From the NCBI GenBank assembly GCA_017535925.1, contig JAFXTD010000038.1, positions 1 through 64,000 on the forward strand: DNA of 64,000 nucleotides, written 5' to 3'. The position numbers and the translations under genes were made by a program. Position 1 is the stretch's first letter; each line of letters opens with the position of its first letter. The notes beneath the pieces are model-generated. The model saw only the letters and a list, made by a program, of their open reading frames with translations, searched no databases and had not been told where the DNA came from. The DNA is from Selenomonadaceae bacterium (lineage in GTDB: Bacteria > Bacillota > Negativicutes > Selenomonadales > Selenomonadaceae). Shown here piece by piece: positions 5,514 through 39,532 of this stretch.

Positions 5514-6089
5514 TTGGAAACGCAAACGGAATTCGGCACGGAAGAAAATTTATCGGCGAAAGATTCCCTCGAAGAGACGCTGGAAAAAATTTTGGAGTTG
5601 CAACAAAAAAATTCACGGCAATTGGTTCAAAGCCTGCGCGAAAACGTGAACTTTCAAAATCAAGTGCGGCAGGGCATGCAACGCGAGCTGGACGACTTGA
5701 AAGAACAACAGCGCGGCGAGCAATTCACTCCGATATTAAAATCAATCGCGGCAATCTGCGTTGAGTATAGAAAACTTTTGACGGACGAGAGCATTTCGAA
5801 ACGGACGCGGCGGACGCTCAAGCTTATGTTCGACGAGCTGGAGGAAATTTTATCGGAATATGATGCGGAAGTTTTCACGTCGGAAATCGGTGAACCGCGT
5901 CGACCTCTCCTCACAAAAATTATCAACACCGTCACGACCGGCAATAAAAATTTGCACAACACTGTTGCCCGCTCCCGAAGACCCGGCGTCATGCGCGGCG
6001 GTCGAACTCTTTATCGCGAATTCGTCGACGTTTATGTTTATGACGCGGCGGCGGGCAGCAAAAAATCTGAATCTGTTCGCAGTGAATAA
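5514..6089 (+). CDS. GrpE-like coiled-coil protein
   Basis: 191 residues from a TTG start eight bases after AAAGGAGG. Residues 18-70 are charged and heptad-like (EETLEKILELQQKN, then QRELDDLKEQQ), predicted coiled coil. A central helical part is followed by VARSRRPGVMRGGRTLYRE and a final strand, which resembles the beta-wing end of GrpE nucleotide-exchange factors. It sits 49 bases before an Hsp70 gene. I infer a dedicated nucleotide-exchange partner for that Hsp70; the similarity is weak and structural rather than motif-level, so GrpE itself is probably encoded elsewhere. Confidence 0.6.
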   Translation: METQTEFGTEENLSAKDSLEETLEKILELQQKNSRQLVQSLRENVNFQNQVRQGMQRELDDLKEQQRGEQFTPILKSIAAICVEYRKLLTDESISKRTRRTLKLMFDELEEILSEYDAEVFTSEIGEPRRPLLTKIINTVTTGNKNLHNTVARSRRPGVMRGGRTLYREFVDVYVYDAAAGSKKSESVRSE

Positions 6090-6113
6090 ATTAGCGGTTA
6101 GCTGTTAGCAGTC
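6090..6113. repeat. Heptamer repeat array (TTAGCGG/TTAGCTG flavour)
   Basis: Three direct heptamers between the GrpE-like gene and the Hsp70 gene, just before its AAAGGAG site. Confidence 0.65.
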
Positions 6114-6138
6114 AGCCGGAAAAGGAGAAAAAAATTTT

Positions 6139-7767
6139 ATGAGCACATACGGTATCGACTTGGGCACAACTTATTCTTGCATAGCGCGTTTGGATTCGAA
6201 CGGCAACCCCGAAGTGATTCGCAACAACGAGGACGATTCAAACACCGTCGCAAGCGTCGTCTTTTTTGAAAACGAAACCAATGTTGTCGTCGGGCAGGCG
6301 GCTAAGGAAAATGTTGAGACTGACGGCGATCGCGTCGTGCAATTCGTCAAGCGCGAAATAGGCAAGCTTCCCGTGAGGACTTACGAATTTGACGGCAAGA
6401 CTTACACGCCCGTTGAAATCAGCGCGCTGATTTTGACACGGCTTAAAAATTTGGTCGAGGCTCAAGGCGGAAAGATTGAGGATGCGGTTATCACGGTGCC
6501 GGCTTATTTCGGACTGGAGGAACGCGCTGCCACAAAGCAGGCGGGCGAACTTGCCGGGCTGAACGTCTTGAGTTTGATTAACGAACCGACTGCGGCTGCT
6601 TTGAGCTATTGCGCCCGTCAATTCCAAGAGGACAGGACGATTTTGGTTTATGACTTGGGCGGCGGCACTTTCGACGTGACGATTATAAAAATGTCGATGG
6701 CGCAAAACGATTCGGGACGCGACGTTCAGAAAATCACGGTGCTTGCTACCGGCGGCGACGATAAACTCGGCGGCAAAGATTGGGACGAAAAACTTTTCAA
6801 CCACATCCTCCACGCCTGCTGTGACGACAACGGCTTGATGCCCGAAGAAATCAGCGCGGAAACTCGACAAGATATTTTCAGCAAAGTCGAAGAGGCGAAA
6901 CGCAAATTAAGCAAGAAACAATCCGCCAAGCTTCGTATCGACGTGAACGGCTCGCGAACCGAAATTGTTATCAAGCGTTCTGACTTTGAGCAAATGACTT
7001 CCGACCTCGTGGCAAAGACGATGAATTTTGTTGACGCCACTTTGGAACAAGTTCCCGACGCCGCGATTGATACCGTTTTGCTCGTAGGTGGCTCAACTTA
7101 CATGCCGATGATAATCAATGCGGTTGAGTCGAAATTTCCCGGCAAAGTTCAACAGCACGACCCCGACCAAGCGGTTGCAAAAGGCGCGGCGATTTACGCA
7201 AGCATGTTGGTTGAGGAAGTCGACAATCCTTCCGCGCAAGGCACTGAAACTTCCGGCGACGAAACTCCACATGCCGAACAGCTCACGAGTAAATTTACCG
7301 TCGAAGACCAAACGCCGCGTTCGTTCGGTCCCGGCGTCGTCGACATGAACGGCGGCAAGCAAACTTACGTTTTGGAAAATTTCATTAAGATTGGCGAGAA
7401 GATGCCCGCCGTGTTCACGAAGACTTATTACCCGCTTGAAGACAATCAGGAACTTGTTCGCCTGCGCGCCTTTGAAAACAGGTCAACCGACGATACGTTG
7501 ATTCCCTGCGTCGACGAGGACGGCAATCCTCAAGCGACAGACCCCGCACACAACGTCAAACTTTTGGGTGAGCTTGTCGTCAATCTTCCTCCGAACACGA
7601 GCCGCGACACGCCGATTAAAGTCACGTTCAAAGTCGACGCTTCGGGCGTTCACGTCGAGGCGGTCAACACCAAGACCAATGAGGTTTTTGAAACTTTCCT
7701 GCGCACCGAATCCGAAATTGACGTTGAGCGCAGTGCCGTCCATCAGTTGCGCATTTCCTCCGATTGA
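6139..7767 (+). CDS. Hsp70-family chaperone, short non-canonical DnaK
   Basis: 542 residues against 610-640 for housekeeping DnaK. The ATPase domain is complete: IDLGTTYSCIA phosphate-1, VYDLGGGTFDVT phosphate-2, NEPTAAALSY and LLVGGSTYMPM adenosine loop. After an acidic linker around residues 355-380 (VEEVDNPSAQGTETSGDETP) there is a beta-type substrate domain, but the helical lid is largely missing. Flanked by a GrpE-like gene and a J-like/zinc-ribbon gene, so it is likely a specialised ATP-driven switch in a dedicated module rather than the general chaperone. No hrcA or CIRCE element is present. Confidence 0.85.
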   Translation: MSTYGIDLGTTYSCIARLDSNGNPEVIRNNEDDSNTVASVVFFENETNVVVGQAAKENVETDGDRVVQFVKREIGKLPVRTYEFDGKTYTPVEISALILTRLKNLVEAQGGKIEDAVITVPAYFGLEERAATKQAGELAGLNVLSLINEPTAAALSYCARQFQEDRTILVYDLGGGTFDVTIIKMSMAQNDSGRDVQKITVLATGGDDKLGGKDWDEKLFNHILHACCDDNGLMPEEISAETRQDIFSKVEEAKRKLSKKQSAKLRIDVNGSRTEIVIKRSDFEQMTSDLVAKTMNFVDATLEQVPDAAIDTVLLVGGSTYMPMIINAVESKFPGKVQQHDPDQAVAKGAAIYASMLVEEVDNPSAQGTETSGDETPHAEQLTSKFTVEDQTPRSFGPGVVDMNGGKQTYVLENFIKIGEKMPAVFTKTYYPLEDNQELVRLRAFENRSTDDTLIPCVDEDGNPQATDPAHNVKLLGELVVNLPPNTSRDTPIKVTFKVDASGVHVEAVNTKTNEVFETFLRTESEIDVERSAVHQLRISSD

Positions 7768-8308: not shown

Positions 8309-8335
8309 AATTTTTCCCCTTAAGGAGGATTGAGT

Positions 8336-11300
8336 TTGGCTAAACGGAATATTTTTGAAATGCTCGGCTTGGAATTCGACCCTCCCGACAACGTGAAAAA
8401 AATTCGAGCCGCTTATGAAAGTTGGAAGAAGCGACTGACTGCCGAGCAAAATACGACGATTGACCCTCAACGCGTTGCCGAGATTCGCGAAGAATTGCAA
8501 CTGGCAGATTACATTGCGTTGACGATTGACAATCCGCGTTTCAGACAGCGGGAGGCGGAATCGCTCAAGCAACAGCGCGTGGAGGAATTGCGACTTTATA
8601 TCGAGATACAGCGCGGCGAAACTCAAGGCACTTTGCAAGTCAATCAATCGCAAATTCGGCAGGTGCGTGACAAATTGCGATTAAGCCCGACGACAATCGA
8701 GGCGACTTACAAAGAGCAAGGCTTCGAAATAAAACCGGCAAAGACCGCGCAGAAAATTTTGGCGACGCTCAACAATTTTTTCATGTCCGATTCGATAATG
8801 GAGGAGCTGCGCAGAAATTTTGAGACCTTTCGACAAGTGCCCGATGAAAAAAATTTTCCTTGGTCGGCGAACGTTCACGACCTCTACGAATTGGCTTTCT
8901 ATATCGAAAATCAGATTGAACCTTCGCCGGAATTTTATCGCCGCCGTTCGACGGAGGACTTGCGAGAAATTTTCCGTGAGGAGGCAAAAAAATATTCCGC
9001 GCCGATTTCTCAATGGCAAGCTATCAAAGCCCTGCTCAACATTGCTCAAAGCCAAGTCTTCAACACGAACGACAGCCGCTTCAAATACGACCACTCGTTG
9101 AAGATTGAGAGGCTTGCAGATTTTTTCGCGAAGATAAAAGCCGCGCCCGACCTCTTCAAACGCGACAACTATTTTGCCGACAACTGCATAAATCACATTC
9201 GGCGCACCTTCCCGAATTTTTTGGATTACGAATTGAGTGCCGCGCTTTACAACAAGGCGGCGGGCTTGCTGAAAAATCCTTACGAGGCGACCGACGACGA
9301 CGGCGAAAATTTTTTTTGGGTGACGTGTGCAAACTGCGGAGCCTTTGAAAAATTTCGGACGCGTGAGGAAGGCGAGCGTGCCAAGTGTAAAATTTGCGGC
9401 GATAATTTTTTCGTCGAGTGTCCCAAATGCGGAAAGAAACTTCCTGCGATTGCCGACCGCTGCACCGCCTGCAACTTTTCAATCAGTGAGTTCAAACGAT
9501 TTTCAAATTACATTGCCGAAGCAAATTCGATGCTTAACCTCGTCGAACAAGCCCGAAATGCCGATGAGGATGTTCATCTCGTCATGGCGGAGATTATAAA
9601 AATTCTTGCCAAAGCCAGACTGCTCAAGCCCGAATCAAACGACTTGAAAAAAATTGAGTGGCGCATTAATAAGATTGCCAACGAACTCAAGAAGCGCGAA
9701 CTGTTTGCTTGGGCAGAAAAAAAATTGCCGAGCCTCTCTATCGCGCCCGACAAAGCCGTCAGTGATTGCATTGAAATTTTGCGCAAGATTAAAGACTACA
9801 AGCCCGCGCAGGACAGATTGAAACTTATTCCGCCGAAAGCCCCGCCCGTGATTGTCGCCGCGCTCAAAGAAAATTATTCGCCCGTCAACAACTCAAGTAT
9901 CGGGAAAATTTCTGTCAAGGCGAAGTCCTCAAGCCTCGCCGAAACGAATACGAATTTGATTTGCAACGTCTCTTGGCAAGCCCCCGCCGACTTGGGTTTG
10001 ACTTACACGCTGATAAAAAAGATTAACGGCGTGCCGCAAACTTATCGCGACGGAGAAATTTTGATTGAGAACACCGACAAGCTCGAATTCATTGACACCG
10101 ACGTTAAGCCCGGCGTGCTTTACGGCTACGCAATTTTTTCGACACGGCTGGGAGCTGTTTCCTCGCCGAAGACAACGACCGCCGTCCACTACAGCGACCT
10201 CGACGAAAAAAAATTAATCGCCAAAACCGAAGACGGCTCGTGCAAATTTATTTGGCGATTGCCTTCGGAAAATTGTTTGGGCATAAGGATTTTGCGTTCG
10301 GACAGCGCGGGCAAGAGCGTCGTCGTTGCCGATTGTGTTCAATCGCCCTTCGTCGACAACACCGTCAAGAATCGCAAGCAATATCAATATCGTTTGCAAT
10401 GCGTCTACCACGCCGCCGAAGACGCCCTCAACAACAGCGAAAAATTTTTTTCACGCCAAAGCCACGACGAAAATTTGAGCGGCGTCTGGAAGATTGACAG
10501 GACTTATAAATACAGCAGCGGCTTGACGGTGACCTTAACGCCCGAAAAACCTCCGAAGCCCGTTGATAATTTGATTTGCACCGTGAAAGGCGGACGAGTT
10601 TTTTTCAAGTGGAAGTCGACGGGCGACTTTGACATTTGGTTTAAAGAAGTCATCAAGGAACCCGCCAAGCTTGACAAAAAAATTTTCGCGACGGCTGACA
10701 TTGACGAGCTTTTGGGTAGCGGCGTCGTTTACAAGAAAGCGGAGAGTATCAACGAGGCTTGTGACTTTCCTTTGAGCAACGATAATGTTAAAATTGCAGT
10801 CGTGAGCGCGACGCGTGAGGCGGCTCTTGTAAATGATATTGTGACTTGCGCGAACGTCGAGCCTTGCGAAATTGATTCCGTCAAAACGCAAATTGATGCG
10901 GGAGGCTTGCGGCTTGTCTTGAAGAGCATTCCCGAAAATCTTTATCTGATTCACTACAAGATAAACACGAGCGACGCCGACGAATTTTACGCGACGATAG
11001 AGACGGCTAAGGCGCGGCAGATGAATCGCATTTACGCGACGAAATACGCTCAAGACACTTTCATTTCGCAGACGCATTTGCCGCCGAAAGAAATTTATAT
11101 CACAGTCATCGGCGAATACAAATTCAGTGACGGGACAGCCGCTTGGTGCGCGCCGAGCACTTTGACTTTGGACAACCGCCCGAAGGAAATTATTTCTTAT
11201 CATTTGGAATGGGGAACGAGCGGGCTTTTCAAAAAAGAAATTCACGCCAAAGATTGCAAGTTGATAATCGAGAGCACCGCTTGCCCCGCGCCGAAGATGT

Positions 11301-11548
11301 CTTTGGTTTGTCGACGCGACGGGCGCATGAATATCGAGGCGGGAGATTCGGCGACGCGGACGCTGGGAAATATTCGCGCTTATCCGGAAGGCTACACGAG
11401 CGGGCGGCTTGAAATCGATTTACCGAACGAGACATGGAAAGATATATCGACGGGCACGGTCGTCAAGCTTATGACTTCCAAAGAGGATGAAAAACGTTTT
11501 GAGCTGAAGGCTTCGCGCCCCGACAGCTTAATCGTTCCGAAAAAGTGA
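8336..11548 (+). CDS. Large J-like / zinc-ribbon / FN3-like repeat protein
   Basis: 1070 residues; the TTG at 8336 is chosen because it lies seven bases after AAGGAGG, whereas the TTG at 8330 is too close. Residues 1-60 (NIFEMLGLEFDPPDN, IRAAYESWKKRLTAEQ) look like a degenerate J-domain lacking HPD. Residues about 325-385 hold three zinc-ribbon knuckles (CANCGAF, CKICGDNFF, CPKCGKK, CTACNF). The second half is a run of beta-rich segments (VSWQAPADLGLTYTLIKKING, FIWRLPSENCLGIRILR) resembling fibronectin type III modules. No enzyme motif seen. By position it is probably the client or scaffold protein for the upstream Hsp70. Confidence 0.72.
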   Translation: MAKRNIFEMLGLEFDPPDNVKKIRAAYESWKKRLTAEQNTTIDPQRVAEIREELQLADYIALTIDNPRFRQREAESLKQQRVEELRLYIEIQRGETQGTLQVNQSQIRQVRDKLRLSPTTIEATYKEQGFEIKPAKTAQKILATLNNFFMSDSIMEELRRNFETFRQVPDEKNFPWSANVHDLYELAFYIENQIEPSPEFYRRRSTEDLREIFREEAKKYSAPISQWQAIKALLNIAQSQVFNTNDSRFKYDHSLKIERLADFFAKIKAAPDLFKRDNYFADNCINHIRRTFPNFLDYELSAALYNKAAGLLKNPYEATDDDGENFFWVTCANCGAFEKFRTREEGERAKCKICGDNFFVECPKCGKKLPAIADRCTACNFSISEFKRFSNYIAEANSMLNLVEQARNADEDVHLVMAEIIKILAKARLLKPESNDLKKIEWRINKIANELKKRELFAWAEKKLPSLSIAPDKAVSDCIEILRKIKDYKPAQDRLKLIPPKAPPVIVAALKENYSPVNNSSIGKISVKAKSSSLAETNTNLICNVSWQAPADLGLTYTLIKKINGVPQTYRDGEILIENTDKLEFIDTDVKPGVLYGYAIFSTRLGAVSSPKTTTAVHYSDLDEKKLIAKTEDGSCKFIWRLPSENCLGIRILRSDSAGKSVVVADCVQSPFVDNTVKNRKQYQYRLQCVYHAAEDALNNSEKFFSRQSHDENLSGVWKIDRTYKYSSGLTVTLTPEKPPKPVDNLICTVKGGRVFFKWKSTGDFDIWFKEVIKEPAKLDKKIFATADIDELLGSGVVYKKAESINEACDFPLSNDNVKIAVVSATREAALVNDIVTCANVEPCEIDSVKTQIDAGGLRLVLKSIPENLYLIHYKINTSDADEFYATIETAKARQMNRIYATKYAQDTFISQTHLPPKEIYITVIGEYKFSDGTAAWCAPSTLTLDNRPKEIISYHLEWGTSGLFKKEIHAKDCKLIIESTACPAPKMSLVCRRDGRMNIEAGDSATRTLGNIRAYPEGYTSGRLEIDLPNETWKDISTGTVVKLMTSKEDEKRFELKASRPDSLIVPKK

Positions 11549-32138: not shown

Positions 32139-32220
32139 TGCCGCGCCCTCCGAAAATTTTTTATCATTATAACATAAATGTGCTACAATAAACAGCAATC
32201 AGTTATCGGGAGGCGATTGA
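32139..32220. promoter_or_regulatory. Divergent tetR / glf promoter region
   Basis: Rightward: TTATCA, 17 bases, TACAAT toward glf. Leftward: a TATAAT within the same segment toward the TetR gene. The two overlap, allowing mutual control. Confidence 0.5.
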
Positions 32221-33360
32221 ATGTTTGACGTTGTGATAATCGGCGCGGGGCTCGCGGGCTCGGTTTTGGCGGAACGTTTTGCCTCAAGCGGGAAAAAAAT
32301 TTTATTGATTGAACGTCGTCGACACGTCGCGGGAAATTGTTATGACGAGGTCGACGCGAACGGCATTTTGATTCACAAATACGGACCGCACCTCTTCCAC
32401 ACCGACGACGCGCAAGTTTGGAATTATCTTTCGCGGTTCACCGAGTGGCAACTTTATTTCCACAAAGTCAAGGCGGTTATCGACGGCAAGCCCGTGCCCA
32501 TTCCGTTTAATTTGAACACGTTGCGCGAAGTTTTTCCTCCGAGCTTGGCAGAAAAATTGGAAGCGGCTCTGCTGAAAAATTTTGAGTACGGCAAGCGCAT
32601 TCCGATTCTTGAATTAAAAAAATCCTCCGACGCCGATTTGCAATTCTTGGCTGACTTCATCTACGAAAAAATTTTCTTGCACTACACCGAAAAGCAATGG
32701 GGTTTATCGCCCGATAAAATTTCCGGCGCGGTCACGGCTCGCGTTCCGATTTTCGTCGGGCGTGACGACAGATATTTCGGCGACCGTTTTCAAGCCATGC
32801 CCAAGCGCGGCTACACGAAGCTTGTCGAAAATATGCTTGCCAAAAAAAATATCAAGCTCCTGCTCAACACCGACTTTCACGAAGTCATGAACTTGCACGA
32901 CGAGGAAATTTTTTTGTTCGGGCAGAAATTTGGCGGGCGAATAATTTACACGGGGCAGCTTGAGGAATTGTTCGATAAAAAATTCGGCGTGTTGCCTTAT
33001 CGCAGTATCGATATGAAATTCGAAAACGTCGACGCAGAAATTTTTCAAACGGCTCCCGTCGTCAACTACCCGAACAATTACGACTTCACGCGAATCACCG
33101 AGTTTAAATTGATTCATCCCGCGAAGTCAAAGCGCACGACGATTTTAAAAGAGTTCCCTCAAAAATATATCGCGGGCAAAAACGAACCTTACTATCCGAT
33201 TTTCACTGACGAGGCGCGAACGACTTACGAAAAATATCTCGCCGAACTGTCGAAGTTCAAAAACCTCACGGCGGTCGGCAGGCTTGCGGAATATCGCTAC
33301 TATGACATTGACGACGTTGTTAAGCGGGCTCTGGAAGTCTTCGAGGAAATTATCGCTTGA
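32221..33360 (+). CDS. glf: UDP-galactopyranose mutase
   Basis: 379 residues. FAD-binding start DVVIIGAGLAGSVLAERFA, then HVAGNCYDEVD, IHKYGPHLFHT, the substrate segment EKQWGLSPDKISGAVTARVP and a C-terminal GRLAEYRYYDIDDVV. Converts UDP-galactopyranose to UDP-galactofuranose for surface glycans. Its stop codon region doubles as the -35 box of the first small RNA in the array downstream. Confidence 0.94.
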   Translation: MFDVVIIGAGLAGSVLAERFASSGKKILLIERRRHVAGNCYDEVDANGILIHKYGPHLFHTDDAQVWNYLSRFTEWQLYFHKVKAVIDGKPVPIPFNLNTLREVFPPSLAEKLEAALLKNFEYGKRIPILELKKSSDADLQFLADFIYEKIFLHYTEKQWGLSPDKISGAVTARVPIFVGRDDRYFGDRFQAMPKRGYTKLVENMLAKKNIKLLLNTDFHEVMNLHDEEIFLFGQKFGGRIIYTGQLEELFDKKFGVLPYRSIDMKFENVDAEIFQTAPVVNYPNNYDFTRITEFKLIHPAKSKRTTILKEFPQKYIAGKNEPYYPIFTDEARTTYEKYLAELSKFKNLTAVGRLAEYRYYDIDDVVKRALEVFEEIIA

Positions 33361-33385
33361 AAAAATTTTCGCCGTGTGATATGAT
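33357..33385 (+). promoter_or_regulatory. Promoter of array RNA 1
   Basis: TTGAAA overlapping the glf stop codon, 17 bases, TATGAT. Confidence 0.7.
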
Positions 33386-33391
33386 TCGCGC

Positions 33392-33497
33392 AGTCAAAAT
33401 GACAACTTTAAAGGCAGGTCGATGTTGTGGGACGTCGACACCTCTCTTAGTTAAATACTTGTTGAAGAAGGTCGCTTCCGCAGATGCGGCTTTTTTC
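33392..33497 (+). ncRNA. Putative antitoxin RNA, unit 1
   Basis: About 105 nt from the predicted start to a CGC/GCG-stem hairpin with T6 at 33491-33496. It contains GGCAGGTCGATG...CGTCGAC, a hairpin shared with units 2 and 4, followed by ACACCTCTCTTAG, which resembles the antisense of the ribosome site and start region of peptide 1 (leader top strand GACATCACCCCCTCTCATG). It is convergent with the peptide 1 gene and stops just short of its coding sequence; the peptide mRNA probably runs into it. No translatable frame with a ribosome site. Confidence 0.62.
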
Positions 33498-33506
33498 GTG
33501 CCTAAA

Positions 33507-33584
33507 TTACTTCAGGAACGTGAGCAATGCCAAGACCGTCTGAATCAGGCTGAGCACGAGCATCAACCAATCCTTTTTGTCCAT
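33507..33584 (-). CDS. Hydrophobic 25-residue peptide, type I toxin-like, unit 1
   Basis: Starts MDKKDWLML and ends ALLTFLK: charged head, one membrane helix, lysine end. The ATG follows GAGAGGGGGTGATGTC. CCTCTC just upstream pairs with GAGAGG to bury the ribosome site. Own promoter at 33640-33668. Related to peptides 2 and 4 by the shared pattern Met-Asp-x-x-Asp-Trp, then a helix with Leu-Ala-Leu/Ile. I infer a membrane-acting toxin of Fst/TxpA type; killing is unproven. Confidence 0.68.
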   Translation of the reverse strand: MDKKDWLMLVLSLIQTVLALLTFLK

Positions 33585-33639
33585 GACATCACCCCCTCTC
33601 ATGCGAGAGGAAAGCCGACACATCGAACCTGCCGCGTGC

Positions 33640-33668
33640 AATATATCATACGTTCATAAAACTTTCAA
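33640..33668 (-). promoter_or_regulatory. Promoter of peptide gene 1
   Basis: Minus strand TTGAAA, 17 bases, TATATT. Confidence 0.78.
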
Positions 33669-33679
33669 GCGGAATCAAT

Positions 33680-33708
33680 TTGACAAAGCGGCGCGAGTGT
33701 GATAGATT
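33680..33708 (+). promoter_or_regulatory. Promoter of array RNA 2
   Basis: TTGACA, 17 bases ending GAGTGTGA, TAGATT; the same sequence recurs at units 3 and 4. Confidence 0.78.
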
Positions 33709-33714
33709 TTCTGC

Positions 33715-33823
33715 AGTCAAAATGACAAATTTAAAGGCAGGTCGTTGGTAGTAGAGCACCGACTTCCTCCCCATTAATACAGATTACGTTGGGTTAAGAA
33801 GCCGTCTCGCGAACGGCTTTTTG
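33715..33823 (+). ncRNA. Putative antitoxin RNA, unit 2
   Basis: About 110 nt, ending at an AAGCCGT/ACGGCTT stem followed by TTTTT. GGCAGGTCG...CACCGAC hairpin, then TTCCTCCCC complementary to the GGAGG ribosome-site core of peptide 2. It ends two bases from the convergent peptide stop codon. Confidence 0.65.
33799..33823 (+). terminator. Terminator of array RNA 2
   Basis: AAGCCGT, loop CTCGCGA, ACGGCTT and T5. Unit 4 has the equivalent at 34531-34556 (GAGCCGTC/GACGGCTC). Confidence 0.78.
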
Positions 33824-33824
33824 A

Positions 33825-33911
33825 CTACTTGCGCTTGTTGAAGTAGTCGATGAGCGCGAGGACGAAATTTCCTGCCGTGAAGAAGAGCTGCAACCAGTCG
33901 AAGATATCCAT
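33825..33911 (-). CDS. Hydrophobic 28-residue peptide, type I toxin-like, unit 2
   Basis: Starts MDIFDWLQLFF, ends IDYFNKRK: a short amphipathic head, one membrane helix and a basic tail. The start follows GAGGAGGTGAGGCGC; upstream CTCCTC pairs with GAGGAG to mask the site. Promoter 33966-33994. Same family as peptides 1 and 4. Confidence 0.72.
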   Translation of the reverse strand: MDIFDWLQLFFTAGNFVLALIDYFNKRK

Positions 33912-33965
33912 GCGCCTCACCTCCTCTCTTCGAGGAGAAAGCCGGTCAACAGACCTGCCGCGTGC

Positions 33966-33994
33966 AATATATCATACGTTCATAAAACTTTCAA
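33966..33994 (-). promoter_or_regulatory. Promoter of peptide gene 2
   Basis: Minus strand TTGAAA, 17 bases, TATATT, identical layout to unit 1. Confidence 0.78.
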
Positions 33995-34005
33995 TCGGAA
34001 GTAGT

Positions 34006-34034
34006 TTGACAAAGCGGCGCGAGTGTGATAGATT
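34006..34034 (+). promoter_or_regulatory. Promoter of array RNA 3
   Basis: TTGACA, 17 bases, TAGATT, identical to unit 2. Confidence 0.78.
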
Positions 34035-34040
34035 TTTGGC

Positions 34041-34146
34041 GTTGACTAAAGGCAACAGCTGTGACGAGGACAGCAGTTCAAGCATATTATCACTGAAACG
34101 AAAACCCCCGCACAGAATTGTGGAGCTGTGCAGGGGTTTCGTTTTG
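34041..34146 (+). ncRNA. Putative antitoxin RNA, unit 3 (par RNAII-like)
   Basis: About 105 nt. Contains ACGAGGACA and, six bases later, TCAAGCATATT then TCAC. The top strand across the start of peptide 3 reads ACGAGGACATCAAGCATATT then TGTCAC. The RNA therefore carries two split antisense blocks (9 and 11 bases) against the peptide 3 initiation region, the same logic as the DRa/DRb repeats of the enterococcal par locus. A GCTGT/ACAGC hairpin presents the first block. It ends at the strong hairpin 34095-34146. Confidence 0.75.
34095..34146. terminator. Bidirectional terminator in unit 3
   Basis: AACGAAAACCCCCGCACAG...CTGTGCAGGGGTTTCGTT long stem with TTTT on one flank and a symmetric A-rich side; suits both the RNA and the convergent peptide mRNA. 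Confidence 0.88.
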
Positions 34147-34202
34147 CCATAACCGGCTGTGGAGACCGATTAGCGGGCAGTCAAGAGTGGAAGTTCTGCC
34201 GC

Positions 34203-34307
34203 TTAACGTTTTCTATTGCGGATGTAGTCGAGGAAGAGACCGCCGAGAACTGTACCGACGAAGCAACCGACCACATTCACGCTAAGCTGAACGAGGACAT
34301 CAAGCAT
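34203..34307 (-). CDS. Hydrophobic 34-residue peptide, Fst-like, unit 3
   Basis: Starts MLDVLVQLSVNVVGCFVG, one glycine-rich membrane helix, basic tail DYIRNRKR. Different in sequence from the other three peptides. The ATG lies seven bases after GGAGGGAGGTG. Promoter 34368-34396. The charged-tail, single-helix layout resembles Fst-family toxins; assignment is by architecture. Confidence 0.75.
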   Translation of the reverse strand: MLDVLVQLSVNVVGCFVGTVLGGLFLDYIRNRKR

Positions 34308-34367
34308 ATTTGTCACCTCCCTCCTCAAGCGTAAAGTTACCGCCTGTGAGGTACGGCATTGCAAAAA

Positions 34368-34396
34368 GATATACCATATGTCCGAAAAGTTTTCAA
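34368..34396 (-). promoter_or_regulatory. Promoter of peptide gene 3
   Basis: Minus strand TTGAAA, 17 bases, TATATC. Confidence 0.72.
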
Positions 34397-34407
34397 GCTG
34401 AATCAAT

Positions 34408-34436
34408 TTGACAAATGGGCGCGAGTGTGATAGATT
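34408..34436 (+). promoter_or_regulatory. Promoter of array RNA 4
   Basis: TTGACA, 17 bases ending GAGTGTGA, TAGATT. Confidence 0.78.
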
Positions 34437-34442
34437 TTTCGC

Positions 34443-34556
34443 AGTCAAATTGACAAATTTAAAGGCAGGTCGATGGTAGCACGTCGACCCCCTTCCTCGT
34501 TAATAGGTTGAATCTGTTAAAACGATTTGGGAGCCGTCGTGGAGGACGGCTCTTCC
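34443..34556 (+). ncRNA. Putative antitoxin RNA, unit 4
   Basis: About 115 nt ending at GAGCCGTC/GACGGCTC. It has GTCGA...TCGAC, then CCCCCTTCCTCG. The top strand over the peptide 4 ribosome site reads GTCACCTCCTTCCTTCG, against GTCGACCCCCTTCCTCG in the RNA, so the two RNAs could pair across the site. Confidence 0.68.
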
Positions 34557-34643
34557 TTATTTATTCTTGCCGAAGAACGTCAGCAACGCGATGATGAACG
34601 TCCCGACGTTGGAGAGATGGTCAATCCAATCGAAGAAATCCAT
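34557..34643 (-). CDS. Hydrophobic 28-residue peptide, type I toxin-like, unit 4
   Basis: Starts MDFFDWIDHLSN, helix FIIALLTFF, end GKNK. GGAAGGAGGTG precedes the ATG by seven bases; CTTCCT upstream pairs with AGGAAG. Promoter 34700-34728. Aligns with peptides 1 and 2 along its whole length. Confidence 0.72.
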   Translation of the reverse strand: MDFFDWIDHLSNVGTFIIALLTFFGKNK

Positions 34644-34699
34644 TCGCGTCACCTCCTTCCTTCGAGGAAGAAAGCCGACTCACCGAACCTGCCGCGGGC

Positions 34700-34728
34700 A
34701 ATATATCATACGCTCATAAAATTTTCAA
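34700..34728 (-). promoter_or_regulatory. Promoter of peptide gene 4
   Basis: Minus strand TTGAAA, 17 bases, TATATT. Confidence 0.78.
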
Positions 34729-34778: not shown

Positions 34779-37523
34779 ATGAACAGCGACGCCGCAAAAA
34801 TTTTCGCGAACGATTGGTACGAAACGGGCGACGAGAAAAGCGACACTCAAAAATTTTGGTGGACTTTGCTCCGAGATGTCTTTGACGTTGAAAAACCCGA
34901 AAAGATTATTGACTTTGAAATTTCCATCGCCGGCGGTTTTATCGACGCTTACATTTCGAAGACCAAAGTTTTAATCGAGCAAAAAAGTTTCGGCGTCGAC
35001 CTCACGAAAAAAATTCTGCAGTCCGACGGAAAATTTCTCACGCCCTTTGAACAGGCAAAACGCTACGCCGACGCTCTGCCCGAAGATAAAAAGCCGCGAC
35101 GAATTGTCACGTGCAATTTCTCCGAGTTCAGAATTTATAATCTGACAAAAAATCTTTTCGACATTGAGCCGACCGTCCTCAAGCTCCGTGACTTGCGTTA
35201 TCAATTTCCGCGCTTGAAATTTTTAATCGACCCGAATGCCGACGAATCGCCGCCCGAAGAAAAAATTTCCAAAGAGGCTCTCGACGTTATCGATAAAATT
35301 TACAAGGCGTTCGAAAGAAATTATCAGCAAAACAACGTCACCGACTACGAAGACGACCTCAACAAAATTTGTACGCGGCTCGTCTTTTGCCTCTATGCCG
35401 GCGACGCGCAACTTTTCGACGCCAATCAATTTTTCAATTACCTGCAGAGTTTCAATGACGCCGAACGCAACAAAGCTTTGCAAAATCTTTTCAACGTCCT
35501 CAACACGCCCGAAGACAAACGCGACGGCTTGAGCGACGACTTGAAAAATTTTCCTTACGTCAACGGCGGGCTCTTTGACGAAAAAATTCCTTTGCCCAAA
35601 TTTAATGACAGAGTCGGTAATCCCACTGCCGCTATCGGAACCTTCAACGCCAGAAAAAAATTTTCTTGGCACGAGATAAGTCCGCCCGTCTTCGGCGCAA
35701 TGTTCGAATCGACTTTCAGCAAGGAAAATCGCGATAAACGTCAACGCGCAAGCGGCATGTTTTATACAAGCGTCGATAATATTCACAAAGTCATTGACCC
35801 GCTCTTCCTCGACGACCTCCGCGATGAATTTGAATTCGCCAAACGCAAACAAATTAAAAATCGTGCCGCCGCTCTAATCGACTTGCAAAACAAAATCGCC
35901 TCGCTCAAGTTCCTCGACCCGGCGTGTGGTTCCGGAAATTTTTTGACCGAAACTTATTTGAGCCTCCGCCGCCTCGAAAATGAAATCCTTGAAGAACTTC
36001 GACCGCTCGTCAAGCTTCCCGATAATCCCATCAAAGTTTCTATCAATCATTTCTTCGGCATTGAAATTAATTCTTTCGCCGCTGCCGTCGCGCAGACCGC
36101 TCTTTGGATTGCCGAAAACCAAATGCTCCAAGAGACCGAAGGCGCACTCGGAAAAAACATTCAAGCTCTGCCGCTCAAGAATTACGCTACAATCGTCAAG
36201 GCAAATGCTCTTCGCCTCGACTGGAAAAAAATTTGTCCGCATATCGATTTCATTATCGGCAACCCGCCCTTCGTCGGTGCAAGGCTCAAATCTTCCGAAC
36301 AAAGCCGCGATATCGGCAACGTCTTCAACGGCTGGCAAAATATCGGCAACCTCGATTACGTCACTTGCTGGCACAAATTGGCTACCGATTTCATGAAAGG
36401 CAATTCGACTCGCGCCGCCTTCGTCTCGACCAATTCCGTTTGTCAAGGTGACTCTATCGGCTCGCTTTGGAAAAATCTTTTCAACGCCGGCGTTCATATC
36501 GACTTCGCTTACAGAACTTTCAAATGGCTAAGCGATTCGGAAAATATGGCTCACGTTCATTGTATCGTTGTCGGCTTCAGCTGCGCGCAAAATCTCAAGC
36601 CAAAAAAAATTTTCGACGGAGGCAAAGTCACGCTCGCCAAAAACATCAACGCTTACCTCGTCGACGGCGAAGATATTTTCGTCGAAAGCAGACCCAATCC
36701 GATTCAAGACGGCGTGCCCGAAATCGGTATCGGCAACAAACCAATCGACGGCGGCAATTATCTTTTCACGCCCGAAGAAATGGATTACTTCATAAGACGC
36801 GAGCCCGCCTCCGAAAAATTTTTCAAGCCTTGGTTCGGCGCGGAAGAATTTATCAAAGGCAAGCGGCGTTATTGTCTTTTGCTGAAAGATTTATCGGAGG
36901 ATGAAATAAAAAAAATGCCGCTCTGTTGGGAGCGGGTCGAGGCTGTCAGAAATTATCGCCTTCAAAGCAAAAGCCCGGGCACTCGTAAAATTGCAGACAA
37001 GCCCACAAGATTTCACGTCGAAAATTTTCCGCGAGGAAATTATATTTTAGTTCCGCGTCATTCAGCGGGTAATCGTTTTTATATCCCGATTGGCTTTATG
37101 TCTCATGAAACTATTTGTGGCGATGCAAATTTGATTATTCGGAACGCTGAACTTTATCATTTCGGAGTTTTAACGTCGTCAATTCATATGGCATGGACAC
37201 GAGCCACTTGCGGACGATTGGGAAGCGGTTATCGATATTCAAAAGACGTTGTGTACAATAATTTTGTGTGGTGTTCGGCGAGTGAGGAGGAGCGAGCATT
37301 AATCGAGGAATCGGCGCAAAAAATTTTGGACGTTCGAAAAAAATATTTCGATTGGACATTTGCGAAACTCTATGACGAAACGACAATGCCAAAAGCTTTG
37401 CGGGCGGCGCACAAGTGGAACGATTACAACGTTGCCTTGGCTTACGGCTTCGAAGATTTTTGGGAGGACGAGGCAAAAGTCGTAGCGGAGCTTATGAAAC
37501 TTTACAAGGCATTGACAAGTTGA
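34779..37523 (+). CDS. Type IIG restriction-modification enzyme (MmeI-like)
   Basis: 914 residues from ATG 34779, which follows GGGAGGG; the longer open frame upstream overlaps peptide 4 and is rejected. The N-terminus has GGFIDAYISKTKVLIEQKS, a D...ExK nuclease site at about residues 50-67. Then a helical spacer; SAM motif I FLDPACGSGNFLTETYL near residue 378; catalytic IIGNPPFVGARL near 490 (N6-adenine type); C-terminal target-recognition region (SGYRYSKDVVYNNFVW). A single chain both methylates and cuts. Length matches MmeI. Recognition sequence cannot be read. Confidence 0.88.
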   Translation: MNSDAAKIFANDWYETGDEKSDTQKFWWTLLRDVFDVEKPEKIIDFEISIAGGFIDAYISKTKVLIEQKSFGVDLTKKILQSDGKFLTPFEQAKRYADALPEDKKPRRIVTCNFSEFRIYNLTKNLFDIEPTVLKLRDLRYQFPRLKFLIDPNADESPPEEKISKEALDVIDKIYKAFERNYQQNNVTDYEDDLNKICTRLVFCLYAGDAQLFDANQFFNYLQSFNDAERNKALQNLFNVLNTPEDKRDGLSDDLKNFPYVNGGLFDEKIPLPKFNDRVGNPTAAIGTFNARKKFSWHEISPPVFGAMFESTFSKENRDKRQRASGMFYTSVDNIHKVIDPLFLDDLRDEFEFAKRKQIKNRAAALIDLQNKIASLKFLDPACGSGNFLTETYLSLRRLENEILEELRPLVKLPDNPIKVSINHFFGIEINSFAAAVAQTALWIAENQMLQETEGALGKNIQALPLKNYATIVKANALRLDWKKICPHIDFIIGNPPFVGARLKSSEQSRDIGNVFNGWQNIGNLDYVTCWHKLATDFMKGNSTRAAFVSTNSVCQGDSIGSLWKNLFNAGVHIDFAYRTFKWLSDSENMAHVHCIVVGFSCAQNLKPKKIFDGGKVTLAKNINAYLVDGEDIFVESRPNPIQDGVPEIGIGNKPIDGGNYLFTPEEMDYFIRREPASEKFFKPWFGAEEFIKGKRRYCLLLKDLSEDEIKKMPLCWERVEAVRNYRLQSKSPGTRKIADKPTRFHVENFPRGNYILVPRHSAGNRFYIPIGFMSHETICGDANLIIRNAELYHFGVLTSSIHMAWTRATCGRLGSGYRYSKDVVYNNFVWCSASEEERALIEESAQKILDVRKKYFDWTFAKLYDETTMPKALRAAHKWNDYNVALAYGFEDFWEDEAKVVAELMKLYKALTS

Positions 37524-37531
37524 AGAGCGAA

Positions 37532-39532
37532 TTAATTTTTGACGAGCTTGGAGCCTTTGATTCGATAAGTATCGCCGTTGACGTTGAAGGTCGAGGCGGT
37601 GAAATCTTGGAGCGTGACCGAGCCGCCGGCGACTTTGAAAGTTATCGCGTCGTTTTTGCAGGAGGCTTTGAAGTCGAGCGCGTCGAGGGTGAGGGTGTCT
37701 TTGTTGTCGAAGCCGTAAATAATATCTTTGCCGTCGCCCGCCGAGTAGAAAAAAGTATCGGCACCGGAATTTCCCCAGAGCGAATCATTGCCTTTGCCGC
37801 CGATTAAAGTATCATTGCCTTTGCCGCCGTTGAGACTGTCATTGCCCTCGCCGCCATGAAGTTTATCGTTGCCTGCATTGCCGTAAAGTCTGTCGTTGCC
37901 GTCGTTGCCGTAGAGTTTATCATTGCCTGCACAGCCGTAAAGTTTATCGTTCGCAGAGCCTCCGTTTATCTTGTTGTCGAGAGCGTTGCCCGTGATTTTA
38001 ATTGCGGTCGTTCGTTTTGAGGCATTGAGGACTTTGATTGAGTCATCGGCAGTGACGGGTGAAGTTGCCGAATTTGTCAAAGTCAAAGTTGTACCGCCGA
38101 GCACCGTCGAAAATTTTTCCCCCGTCGAATCAATTATGTTGAGTGTTTTGCCTTTGGCGTTTTGAACGGTGAGAGAACTTTTGCCGAACGTGAAGACGAC
38201 ATCCGAGCCGTTGAGTTTTGTTTTTGAAATCGCCGCGCCGAGAGAAATTTTATCGTCAGCCGAGTAATCGGTGATTGTATCTTTGCCCGCCGAGTAAATG
38301 AAAACGTCATTGCCTTTGCCGCCGGTGAGAGTGTCGTTGCCTTTGCCGCCCGCGAGGGTGTCATTGCCGGCGTTGCCCGCGAGTGAATCATTGCCTTTGC
38401 CGGCGAGGATTGAATTTGCATTGGCGTTGCCCAAAATCACGAGTCCGTTTCCGAAAGAGGAGGCGTCGACTTTTTTTATTGCAGAATATTTTTTGAGGTC
38501 GAGGGTGTCATCGGGAAAATTTTTCGAGACGGTCAAAGCGGAACCTTTAATCGTAATCAATCCGAAGTCTTCCAAAGTGTTGACATCGGACAAAAAATTT
38601 TCCGCGCCTTGTTTGGCGAGGTAGCGCAAGAACATCCAGCCGCCGGCATAAGCGTAGTTGCTGCTGCTATTCGACGAAAGATTGACATAGGTTTTCAGCT
38701 TCTTGTAGTTTTTGCCCAATTCTTTGATTGTGATTTTCCTCAAGTCGTCAATGCCGTGCGTGAGTTCCCCCAGCCCTTCTCTGATAAATCGAGGCAATTC
38801 GTCGTAGTCCTTCACCTTAGCCATCATTATTCCGTGAGTCAATTCGTGAGCGATAATTCTGTCCAAGTAGGCGGAGTCGACCGAAGTTGTGCCGTTCACG
38901 TCGGTGGTCTTGAAGGTGGGGCATTGAGCTTTGTTTATGTTCAAAATCAGCGAATAGTGCCCGTTAATTTTTTTCGGGTAGTCGACGTAAGCCATGTAAC
39001 TTGACTTCTTGTCGTTTTTAAAGACAACGGTAATTTCATTGACGGTTACGTCGTCGTCGTTGAAAGAATAGCCGTAAGATTCTTTGATGAGATTCAAAGC
39101 CGCCGCCGCCCACCAAGTTTTCAGAGCCTGCCAAATGTGAGCCTCGTTAGCGGACAAAGAAGTTTTTGAGAGGCGGAAGGTCAATCCGTTTGTCGTGAAG
39201 GAAGTCGCATTGAACGAGGTATTCAGCTTGCCGCTTTCGGGGACGATTGATTCTGCAGTTTTGACATTGCCGCCCGCGTCGTAGCCGATAATCGAGCCGG
39301 TGTCCGCGTTGCTTAAATTTATTCCGCAATATTTTTTCAGGAAGGTATCGGCGTTGCCTGTCTGTTTGCAATCGGCAACCATTTGATTTATCGCCGCCGA
39401 AAAATTTTTGAAGTAGCCGCCCGTCGCGTATTTGACTGCTCCGTCGACAGCCGCATTGCCCGAATAAGTTGTGTTGTCCAAGTAGTACATGAACTTTTTT
39501 ATAATGTCTTGTTGAGTTATTGTTGCCGCCAT
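37532..39532 (-). CDS. RTX-repeat secreted metallopeptidase
   Basis: 666 residues from ATG 39532 after GAGGAG. No N-terminal signal peptide. Around residue 230 a zinc site [14 protein letters not shown] (HExxH) is followed by [10 protein letters not shown], plausibly the third ligand region. From residue 370 there are two blocks of calcium-binding nonapeptides ([40 protein letters not shown]), typical of type I secretion substrates. No ABC/HlyD/TolC genes are nearby. Stop codons of this and the type IIG gene are eight bases apart and convergent. Likely an extracellular protease; substrate unknown. Confidence 0.82.

What the first reader, a model, noticed from the sequence alone, without database searches (positions are those of the whole stretch)
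33357..34728. Tandem array of four type I toxin-antitoxin-like modules, each a tiny membrane peptide facing a small RNA
Four units of about 310-390 bp repeat head to tail. Each has a rightward promoter (TTGAAA/TATGAT once, TTGACA/TAGATT three times, all 17-base spacing), a roughly 105-115 nt RNA, and a leftward gene for a 25-34 residue one-helix peptide with a strong ribosome site and its own TTGAAA-17-TATATT/C promoter. Convergent toxin/antitoxin RNA geometry is known from par (Fst/RNAII), TxpA/RatA and BsrG/SR4. Peptides 1, 2 and 4 share a Met-Asp-x-x-Asp-Trp head and appear to be a family I cannot name. The peptides are too short for standard gene callers.
Basis: partly seen in the sequence, partly recalled or inferred. 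Interest (0 to 1): 0.93.

Follow-up and report, generated by a model that had tools for sequence, protein, structure and literature searches.

The report
Toxin-antitoxin array beside a restriction gene
A likely ruminant-gut bacterium carries, right next to a restriction-enzyme-like gene, four tandem units that each pair a tiny predicted membrane-toxin gene with a facing predicted small RNA that would pair with the toxin message's start and likely silence it; several related genomes carry such units beside the same kind of gene, so the array is likely an addiction or guard cassette, though nothing has been tested in cells.

Summary
In detail: four head-to-tail units (318-378 bp apart), seven of eight promoters listed by a scan, four small convergent ORFs. 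It is not a local oddity. In the loci held I found 153 units at 119 distinct places (96 single, 23 with two to four units), in the window's genus and its family. There are two peptide classes. H (window peptides 1, 2, 4) resembles Pfam Hol_Tox, below its cut-off. F (peptide 3) has no Pfam or NCBIfam family; convincing matches were confined to the window's family. In class F the facing RNA carries an interrupted antisense copy of its own toxin's ribosome-binding site to codon ~8: the cognate RNA ranks first for 13 of 13 units, and for 41 of 54 further units. This is par-like wiring with a toxin that Pfam's Fst model does not recognise. Class H RNAs match the Shine-Dalgarno sequence only generically. 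In the closest relative the same site holds one unit with intact frame. Unexpectedly, units recur beside MmeI-like (type IIG/IIL) restriction genes: of such genes at least 55% identical to the window's, 17 of 24 testable have a unit past the 3' end; of more distant paralogues, 2 of 39. Transcription, toxicity and any guard function are untested.

The parts
33357..33385 (+). predicted promoter of small RNA 1 (TTGAAA-17-TATGAT); overlaps the glf stop codon
33392..33498 (+). predicted small RNA 1: 5' hairpin, CU-rich anti-SD segment (~33436-33450), terminator
   Evidence: ends inferred
33507..33584 (-). peptide 1, MDKKDW..., 25 aa, class H
33592..33610 (-). toxin-1 leader hairpin that sequesters the SD
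33640..33668 (-). predicted promoter of toxin mRNA 1
33680..33708 (+). predicted promoter of small RNA 2 (TTGACA-17-TAGATT)
33715..33825 (+). predicted small RNA 2
   Evidence: ends inferred
33825..33911 (-). peptide 2, MDIFDW..., 28 aa, class H; Pfam Hol_Tox 19.7 bits (cut-off 23.3)
33966..33994 (-). predicted promoter of toxin mRNA 2
34006..34034 (+). predicted promoter of small RNA 3
34041..34146 (+). predicted small RNA 3, ends in a hairpin foldable on both strands (possible bidirectional terminator)
   Evidence: ends inferred
34056..34095 (+). antisense segment of small RNA 3, predicted to pair with SD to codon 8 of toxin 3 (-41.3 kcal/mol)
34203..34307 (-). peptide 3, MLDVLV..., 34 aa, class F; predicted single helix, residues 2-33
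34284..34318 (-). predicted target of small RNA 3 in toxin mRNA 3 (about -11 to +24 around AUG)
34368..34396 (-). predicted promoter of toxin mRNA 3 (TTGAAA-17-TATATC)
   Evidence: read from the sequence
34408..34436 (+). predicted promoter of small RNA 4
34443..34556 (+). predicted small RNA 4; its terminator-like hairpin is listed by the scan
   Evidence: ends inferred
34557..34643 (-). peptide 4, MDFFDW..., 28 aa, class H; Hol_Tox E=0.039, below cut-off
34700..34728 (-). predicted promoter of toxin mRNA 4
34779..37523 (+). MmeI-like type IIG/IIL restriction-modification gene (914 aa), proposed partner of the array
32221..33360 (+). glf (UDP-galactopyranose mutase), upstream flank shared with the closest relative

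Best explanation
The region is a tandem array of four predicted type I toxin-antitoxin modules: each 25-34-residue peptide, a predicted membrane toxin, would be kept silent by a facing small RNA predicted to pair with its message's ribosome-binding site, and the array likely works as an addiction or guard cassette for the adjoining MmeI-type restriction gene. Shown by sequence and comparison: the units, their conserved frames and promoter motifs, SD-sequestering leaders (by folding), unit-specific complementarity in class F, one unit instead of four at the same site in a close relative, and recurrent adjacency to MmeI-like genes. Inferred: transcription, toxicity, silencing by the RNA (start-site blocking in class F, SD masking in class H), and that loss or failure of the restriction locus would starve the antitoxins and free the toxins.
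For: Class F pairing: cognate -38.2 vs non-cognate -19.1 kcal/mol, cognate ranked first for 13 of 13, 0 of 20,000 permutations as good; leader and ORF-interior controls null. Further class F units: -41.4 vs -26.1, first for 41 of 54, top three for 50 of 54, 0 of 20,000; sense-strand control first for 2 of 54. Class H: CU segment against the start region -16.9 vs -15.6, 0 of 20,000, leader and ORF controls null. SD core paired at >=4 of 5 bases in 82 of 83 H and 47 of 68 F leaders; pN/pS 0.40 and 0.37. SD-hairpin pairs kept in most of 68 leaders. One unit at the same site in relative G341. MmeI-like gene within 600 bp of 18 of 88 arrays (16 genes). Reverse test from the gene side: 17 of 24 (>=55% identity) vs 2 of 39 (<55%) have a 3' unit, 5 of 28 vs 0 of 39 a 5' unit, the window itself being one of the five. 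PADLOC type IIG among immediate neighbours: 14 of 84 and 2 of 80, the latter two both beside arrays with a class F unit; 0 of 94 more distant genes.
Against: No expression or toxicity data. Class H cognate preference is weak (median rank 25 of 81), and only 25 of 81 CU segments beat shuffles of themselves by z<-2, mean z -1.4. In the window's 4x4 matrix small RNA 4 pairs with toxin message 1 better than with its own, and small RNA 3 leads for message 3 by only 0.3 kcal/mol over small RNA 4, so orthogonality inside the array is not shown. Duplex energies ignore accessibility. Most arrays have no MmeI-like gene within 600 bp (70 of 88; H-only arrays 41 of 43), so a guard role cannot be general. 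The 55% split was chosen after seeing the table; several RM loci share upstream DNA, so linkage events are fewer than loci. The window has the less common geometry (RM 5' end facing the toxin side, 3 of 18).
Confidence: 0.7

Rival explanations
1. The units are type I toxin-antitoxin modules, but they have no functional tie to the restriction gene; both simply collect in the same tolerant chromosomal spots or travel together by descent.
For: 70 of 88 arrays have no MmeI-like gene within 600 bp; in the own genome other units lie by ordinary genes such as uvrC, truB, a GGDEF gene and a phosphate transporter; MmeI-like genes are abundant in the genus, in 55 of 66 genomes; some RM loci share upstream DNA.
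Against: Tight, stereotyped placement: 15 of 18 adjacent cases have the RM 3' end at the RNA side; 17 of 24 vs 2 of 39 by identity band of the RM gene; two genes have units on both sides; 15 upstream contexts among 29 RM loci.
Confidence: 0.35
2. The repeated units act mainly as homologous landing sites through which restriction genes and flanks are exchanged, with the peptides as passengers.
For: In G341 glf plus unit 1 is 93.6% identical in DNA, but the adjoining RM gene is only about 54-71% identical in protein, and 81 nt at the junction match the leaders of both window units 1 and 4.
Against: Frames are under purifying constraint and class F complementarity is maintained, which passenger DNA would lose.
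Confidence: 0.15
3. Small membrane proteins controlled by antisense RNA for a non-toxic role (stress or envelope regulation), not toxins.
For: Toxicity is untested; the class F family has no named relatives.
Against: Class H matches Hol_Tox in 11 of 38 members (best E 2.1e-5); double repression (SD hairpin plus antisense RNA) and multi-copy loci are typical of toxin loci (established knowledge).
Confidence: 0.2

Closest known systems
par (Fst/RNAII) of pAD1 and the Fst/Ldr superfamily
   Same: Convergent promoters, SD sequestered in the toxin leader, RNA complementary to the toxin's translation start through DNA direct repeats, and a terminator hairpin foldable on both strands in the window's class F unit (par features from PMC7472228, passages seen; tests).
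   Different: Pfam Fst_toxin hits no unit in 7 genomes; the tryptophan before the charged tail is present in 3 of the 12 aligned class F peptides; tandem arrays mixed with another toxin class.
TxpA/RatA, BsrG/SR4 (Hol_Tox-like toxins)
   Same: Class H peptides resemble Hol_Tox; convergent RNA. That TxpA and BsrG are Hol_Tox-like is recalled, not from a call.
   Different: Below the Pfam cut-off for the window's peptides. RatA has no complementarity to the translation start of txpA (PMC4147584, passage), whereas class H RNAs carry an SD-complementary segment.
ldr/rdl and zor/orz tandem type I loci of E. coli
   Same: Tandem copies of type I units: three ldr repeats in tandem (PMC4147584, passage), zorO/orzO and zorP/orzP (PMC11264685, passage).
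   Different: Copies of one toxin family there; here two dissimilar classes occur together at 8 of 119 places (one of the 8 with a 794-bp gap).
CreTA guards of CRISPR-Cas
   Same: A toxin-antitoxin pair placed beside a defence system and proposed to guard it (search listing and abstract starts only).
   Different: CreT is an RNA and its repression needs the Cas effector (abstract starts); here the toxin would be a peptide and no role of the RM enzyme in repression is shown.

Membership tests
type I toxin-antitoxin system | small hydrophobic one-helix toxin | tested here: met
   hydropathy peaks 1.85-2.55 over 15 residues for the four peptides; helix 2-33, pLDDT 92.6, for peptide 3; peptide 2 was too short for the predictor, peptides 1 and 4 were not folded
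type I toxin-antitoxin system | antitoxin RNA complementary to its toxin mRNA | tested here: met
   class F strongly; class H at the SD, weakly specific
type I toxin-antitoxin system | toxicity relieved by the RNA | not testable with these tools
   needs bench work
par/Fst | convergent promoters and SD-sequestering leader | tested here: met
   (promoter motifs and folding, not transcripts)
par/Fst | direct repeats that pair at the toxin start | tested here: met
   window 34056-34095 with 34284-34318
par/Fst | shared bidirectional terminator | tested here: inconclusive
   unit 3 hairpin folds on both strands at -22.9 and -26.3 kcal/mol; the consensus scan did not list it
par/Fst | Fst-family toxin | tested here: not met
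   Pfam Fst_toxin matched no unit in 7 genomes at E<=10; 12 class F peptides have no Pfam match at E<=1 but one at 0.055 to an unrelated family
Hol_Tox (TxpA/BsrG-like) | Pfam PF16935 above curated cut-off | tested here: not met
   best window peptide 19.7 bits vs 23.3; none over the cut-off in the own genome
Hol_Tox (TxpA/BsrG-like) | recognisable homology below cut-off | tested here: inconclusive
   11 of 38 class H members match at E<=1, best 2.1e-5; one member matches DUF4044 at 1.4e-4 instead or as well; the same search rings weakly in 11 of 14 control genomes, over the cut-off in 2
guard/addiction cassette of a defence gene | recurrent linkage | tested here: met
   with the limits told there
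guard/addiction cassette of a defence gene | toxin release on loss of the defence gene | not testable with these tools
   needs bench work

The most novel reading that the evidence does not exclude
Arrays of RNA-silenced toxin peptides, of two unrelated families, are the built-in insurance of MmeI-type single-chain restriction enzymes: they travel with the gene, expand and contract by recombination between their leaders, and kill or arrest cells that lose or lose expression of the restriction locus, supplying the addiction that a one-polypeptide restriction-modification enzyme lacks.
Probability: 0.3. Interest if true: 0.92.

Novelty: new variant of a known kind. Interest (0 to 1): 0.8.

Why it matters
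It adds a peptide family with no Pfam or NCBIfam name (class F) and par-like antisense wiring in what is likely Selenomonadaceae, shows arrays that mix two toxin classes, gives a natural data set of intermolecular RNA covariation (67 class F units tested, 13 and 54), and points to a link between type I toxin-antitoxin units and MmeI-type restriction genes that can be tested directly.

Tried and rejected
Rfam: no family at gathering score in the window. Pfam Fst_toxin: nothing on a unit. Phage, plasmid and viral-contig origin: no match to the array in plasmids or phages by distant blastn and none to the class H leader pattern in viral contigs. Class F hits outside the family (9 of the 42 matching genomes, E 2.5e-4 to 0.0095) were taken as chance: 8 of 9 lie in open frames of 190 aa or more; the ninth (G164, 57 aa) was not followed. 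Among 299 phylum genomes only three, all of the window's family, matched at E<=1e-4. Cross-talk inside the window array could not be excluded. A general preference of units for the 3' end of genes was not clear once loci with an RM neighbour were removed (RNA side 37 vs 28; with them 53 vs 31). Literature: the one paper holding 'type I toxin-antitoxin' and 'Selenomonas' is about CRISPR (listing); none holds Selenomonadaceae, toxin-antitoxin and small RNA; none of the eight rows listed (of 119) holds both MmeI and type I toxin-antitoxin. Only openly licensed PMC papers are held.
Full report
What is there. The window region holds four units, each a rightward promoter motif and predicted RNA facing a leftward 25-34-codon ORF with a strong Shine-Dalgarno (SD) sequence. 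Seven of the eight promoters are listed by the scan, which found 10 sites against 1.6 in shuffles; the eighth I read by eye. The toxin promoter of one unit lies back to back with the RNA promoter of the next, with 11 bases between them at each of the three junctions (33668/33680, 33994/34006, 34396/34408).

Where it comes from. The window lies in an unnamed 2.59-Mb assembly. A degenerate pattern for the class H leader hit 50 stretches of named genome contigs, all titled Selenomonadaceae or Selenomonadales, many from ruminant guts, and none in viral contigs. The host is therefore likely an uncultured ruminant-gut member of the Selenomonadaceae; its own record may have been left out of that scan.

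Two peptide classes. Class H (window peptides 1, 2, 4; alignment A1) matches Pfam Hol_Tox in 11 of 38 members, best E 2.1e-5, but the window's best score is 19.7 bits against a cut-off of 23.3. Class F (window peptide 3; alignment A2 of 12) has no Pfam or NCBIfam family (only isolated matches at E 0.02-0.1); one aspartate is invariant and one glycine nearly so; peptide 3 is predicted as one helix. The own genome has nine class H matches at E of 2.1e-8 or better and one weak partial one, and five class F matches.

Spread. In 300 genomes of the class, class H matched 24 at E<=1e-5 (17 of the window's genus with its own, 2 of other genera of the family, 5 of one other family), and class F 42 at E<=0.01 (14 of the genus with its own, 19 of other genera of the family, 9 weak ones beyond it). 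In 299 genomes drawn from the phylum, class F matched three at E<=1e-4, all of the window's family. In the loci held I counted 153 units at 119 distinct places: 96 single units and 23 arrays of two to four; 8 arrays hold both classes (one of them with a 794-bp gap).

Coding and leaders. Pooled pN/pS is 0.40 (H) and 0.37 (F), with the caveat that pairs under 50% peptide identity were left out. The SD core is paired at four or five of five bases in 82 of 83 class H leaders and 47 of 68 class F leaders; leader folding is stronger than in dinucleotide shuffles on average (mean z -2.0 and -1.8; z<-2 in 34 of 83 and 26 of 68). In an alignment of 68 class H leaders the SD-hairpin pairs are kept in nearly all, one of them through a change on both sides (U-A to C-G) in 28 sequences, which may be few events. 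A five-pair 5' hairpin is kept in most of 56 class H RNAs.

Antisense wiring, class F. For the first 13 units the RNA from its predicted start to its terminator pairs with the toxin message from about -11 (in some -19) to about +22, mean -38.2 kcal/mol, and the cognate RNA is the best of 13 for every message; permuted assignments never do as well (0 of 20,000), and leader and ORF-interior controls are null. For 54 further units, taken without promoter predictions, the opposite strand downstream of the ORF gives -41.4 against -26.1 for non-cognate, first in 41, top three in 50, and poor in one (rank 50); the sense strand is first in 2. Some of these units are close relatives of others. Because the peptide starts differ between units, the complementarity must have been maintained, which is strong evidence that the RNA acts on its own toxin message.

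Antisense wiring, class H. A CU-rich segment between the RNA's 5' hairpin and its terminator is complementary to the SD (about -20 to -6). The cognate advantage is small (-16.9 vs -15.6, 0 of 20,000 permutations), with median rank 25 of 81; leader and ORF controls are null; only 25 of 81 segments stand out from their own shuffles at z<-2. In the window, small RNA 3 and message 3 are the best pair of their row and column (-41.3), the column by 0.3 only, and small RNA 4 reaches -41.0 to -46.1 with every message. So class H silencing is likely SD masking with possible cross-talk.

The same site in a close relative. G341 (glf 95% identical) has glf, one class H unit with intact frame, then an MmeI-like gene. 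The DNA from glf through the unit is 93.6% identical to window 32191-33669, and 81 nt of its leader match both the unit 1 and the unit 4 leader of the window. This fits loss or gain of three units by recombination between leaders (inferred). The 23 other glf loci examined (25 of the 45 matching genomes had loci fetched), 73-85% identical, have no unit in the flank held, so the array is young at this site or often lost.

The restriction gene. The gene right of the array is an MmeI-like type IIG/IIL restriction-modification gene. A tblastn of it against the loci then held gave many hits in loci with units. I then fetched larger stretches: of 88 arrays (single units counted), 18 have such a gene within 600 bp, 16 of 45 with a class F unit and 2 of 43 without; these are 16 genes, two of them with units on both sides; 15 times the gene's 3' end is at the RNA side, 3 times its 5' end at the toxin side. 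Random placement within the same stretches gave 7.6 on average, 15 at most in 2000. PADLOC found type IIG enzymes in 14 of 84 neighbours at loci found mainly through class F (type III methyltransferases in 2), in 2 of 80 at loci found mainly through class H, both of these (L287, L294) beside arrays that hold a class F unit, and in 0 of 94 genes more than 2.5 kb away. The 94 are a hand-picked part of 156 drawn; an MmeI-like gene of L280, a stretch fetched because of it, was among those left out. The control set had a few other defence-type hits (one type II methyltransferase, two mad2-like, one viperin-like).

Reverse test. Starting from MmeI-like genes found by protein search, I examined 72 loci: 32 that the searches had fetched and 40 that I picked from the list, mostly full-length. 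With at least 600 bp of flank, a unit lies within 900 bp of the 3' end in 19 of 63 and of the 5' end in 5 of 67. Split at 55% identity to the window's protein, a line drawn after seeing the table, this is 17 of 24 and 5 of 28 (the window itself among the five) against 2 of 39 and 0 of 39. With about 14 units in 2.59 Mb, chance would give well under one case (my estimate). The upstream DNA of 29 RM loci falls into 5 clusters and 10 singletons, and their 3' flanks, which hold the units, mostly join in one cluster of 17 of 25, so the link is seen in several contexts but not in as many independent events as loci.

How it likely works. Shown: the parts, the constraint and the linkage. Inferred: the RNAs are made from their own promoters, pair with the toxin messages and block translation; when the locus is lost or its transcription fails, the RNAs would vanish first and the peptides would damage the membrane. 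In the common geometry the RNA is co-directional with the RM gene and starts just behind it, so read-through could feed the antitoxin; in the window it starts at the glf stop codon instead.

Novelty. The parts are of a known kind; class F, the mixed arrays and the restriction link did not turn up in my literature searches (open-licence PMC papers only). I saw passages, not whole papers, of PMC7472228, PMC4147584, PMC11264685, PMC8309996 and PMC6563280; of the others the listing and the start of the abstract.

Noticed in passing
genus of the window: MmeI-like restriction genes match in 55 of 66 genomes of the genus, with up to 14 matches in one genome (some of them fragments, that genome 9% contaminated), unusually many for one enzyme family.
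   Followed up: partly
L240 (G016:C60), about 5653-7196: Four class F units in tandem beside an MmeI-like gene, the largest pure class F array seen.
   Followed up: partly
L250 and L256: MmeI-like gene with toxin-antitoxin units on both sides.
   Followed up: partly
neighbours in A5: Two neighbours match type III restriction methyltransferases and two match ResIII, so the link may reach beyond MmeI-like enzymes.
   Followed up: no
window 37532-39532 (-): 666-aa protein with RTX calcium-binding repeats and a flagellinolysin-like part (NCBIfam, below cut-off), beside the MmeI-like gene.
   Followed up: no
window 8330-11548 (+): 1072-aa ORF without any Pfam match at E<=1e-8.
   Followed up: no
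family f25 genomes: Class H-like peptides also match in five genomes of another family of the class.
   Followed up: no
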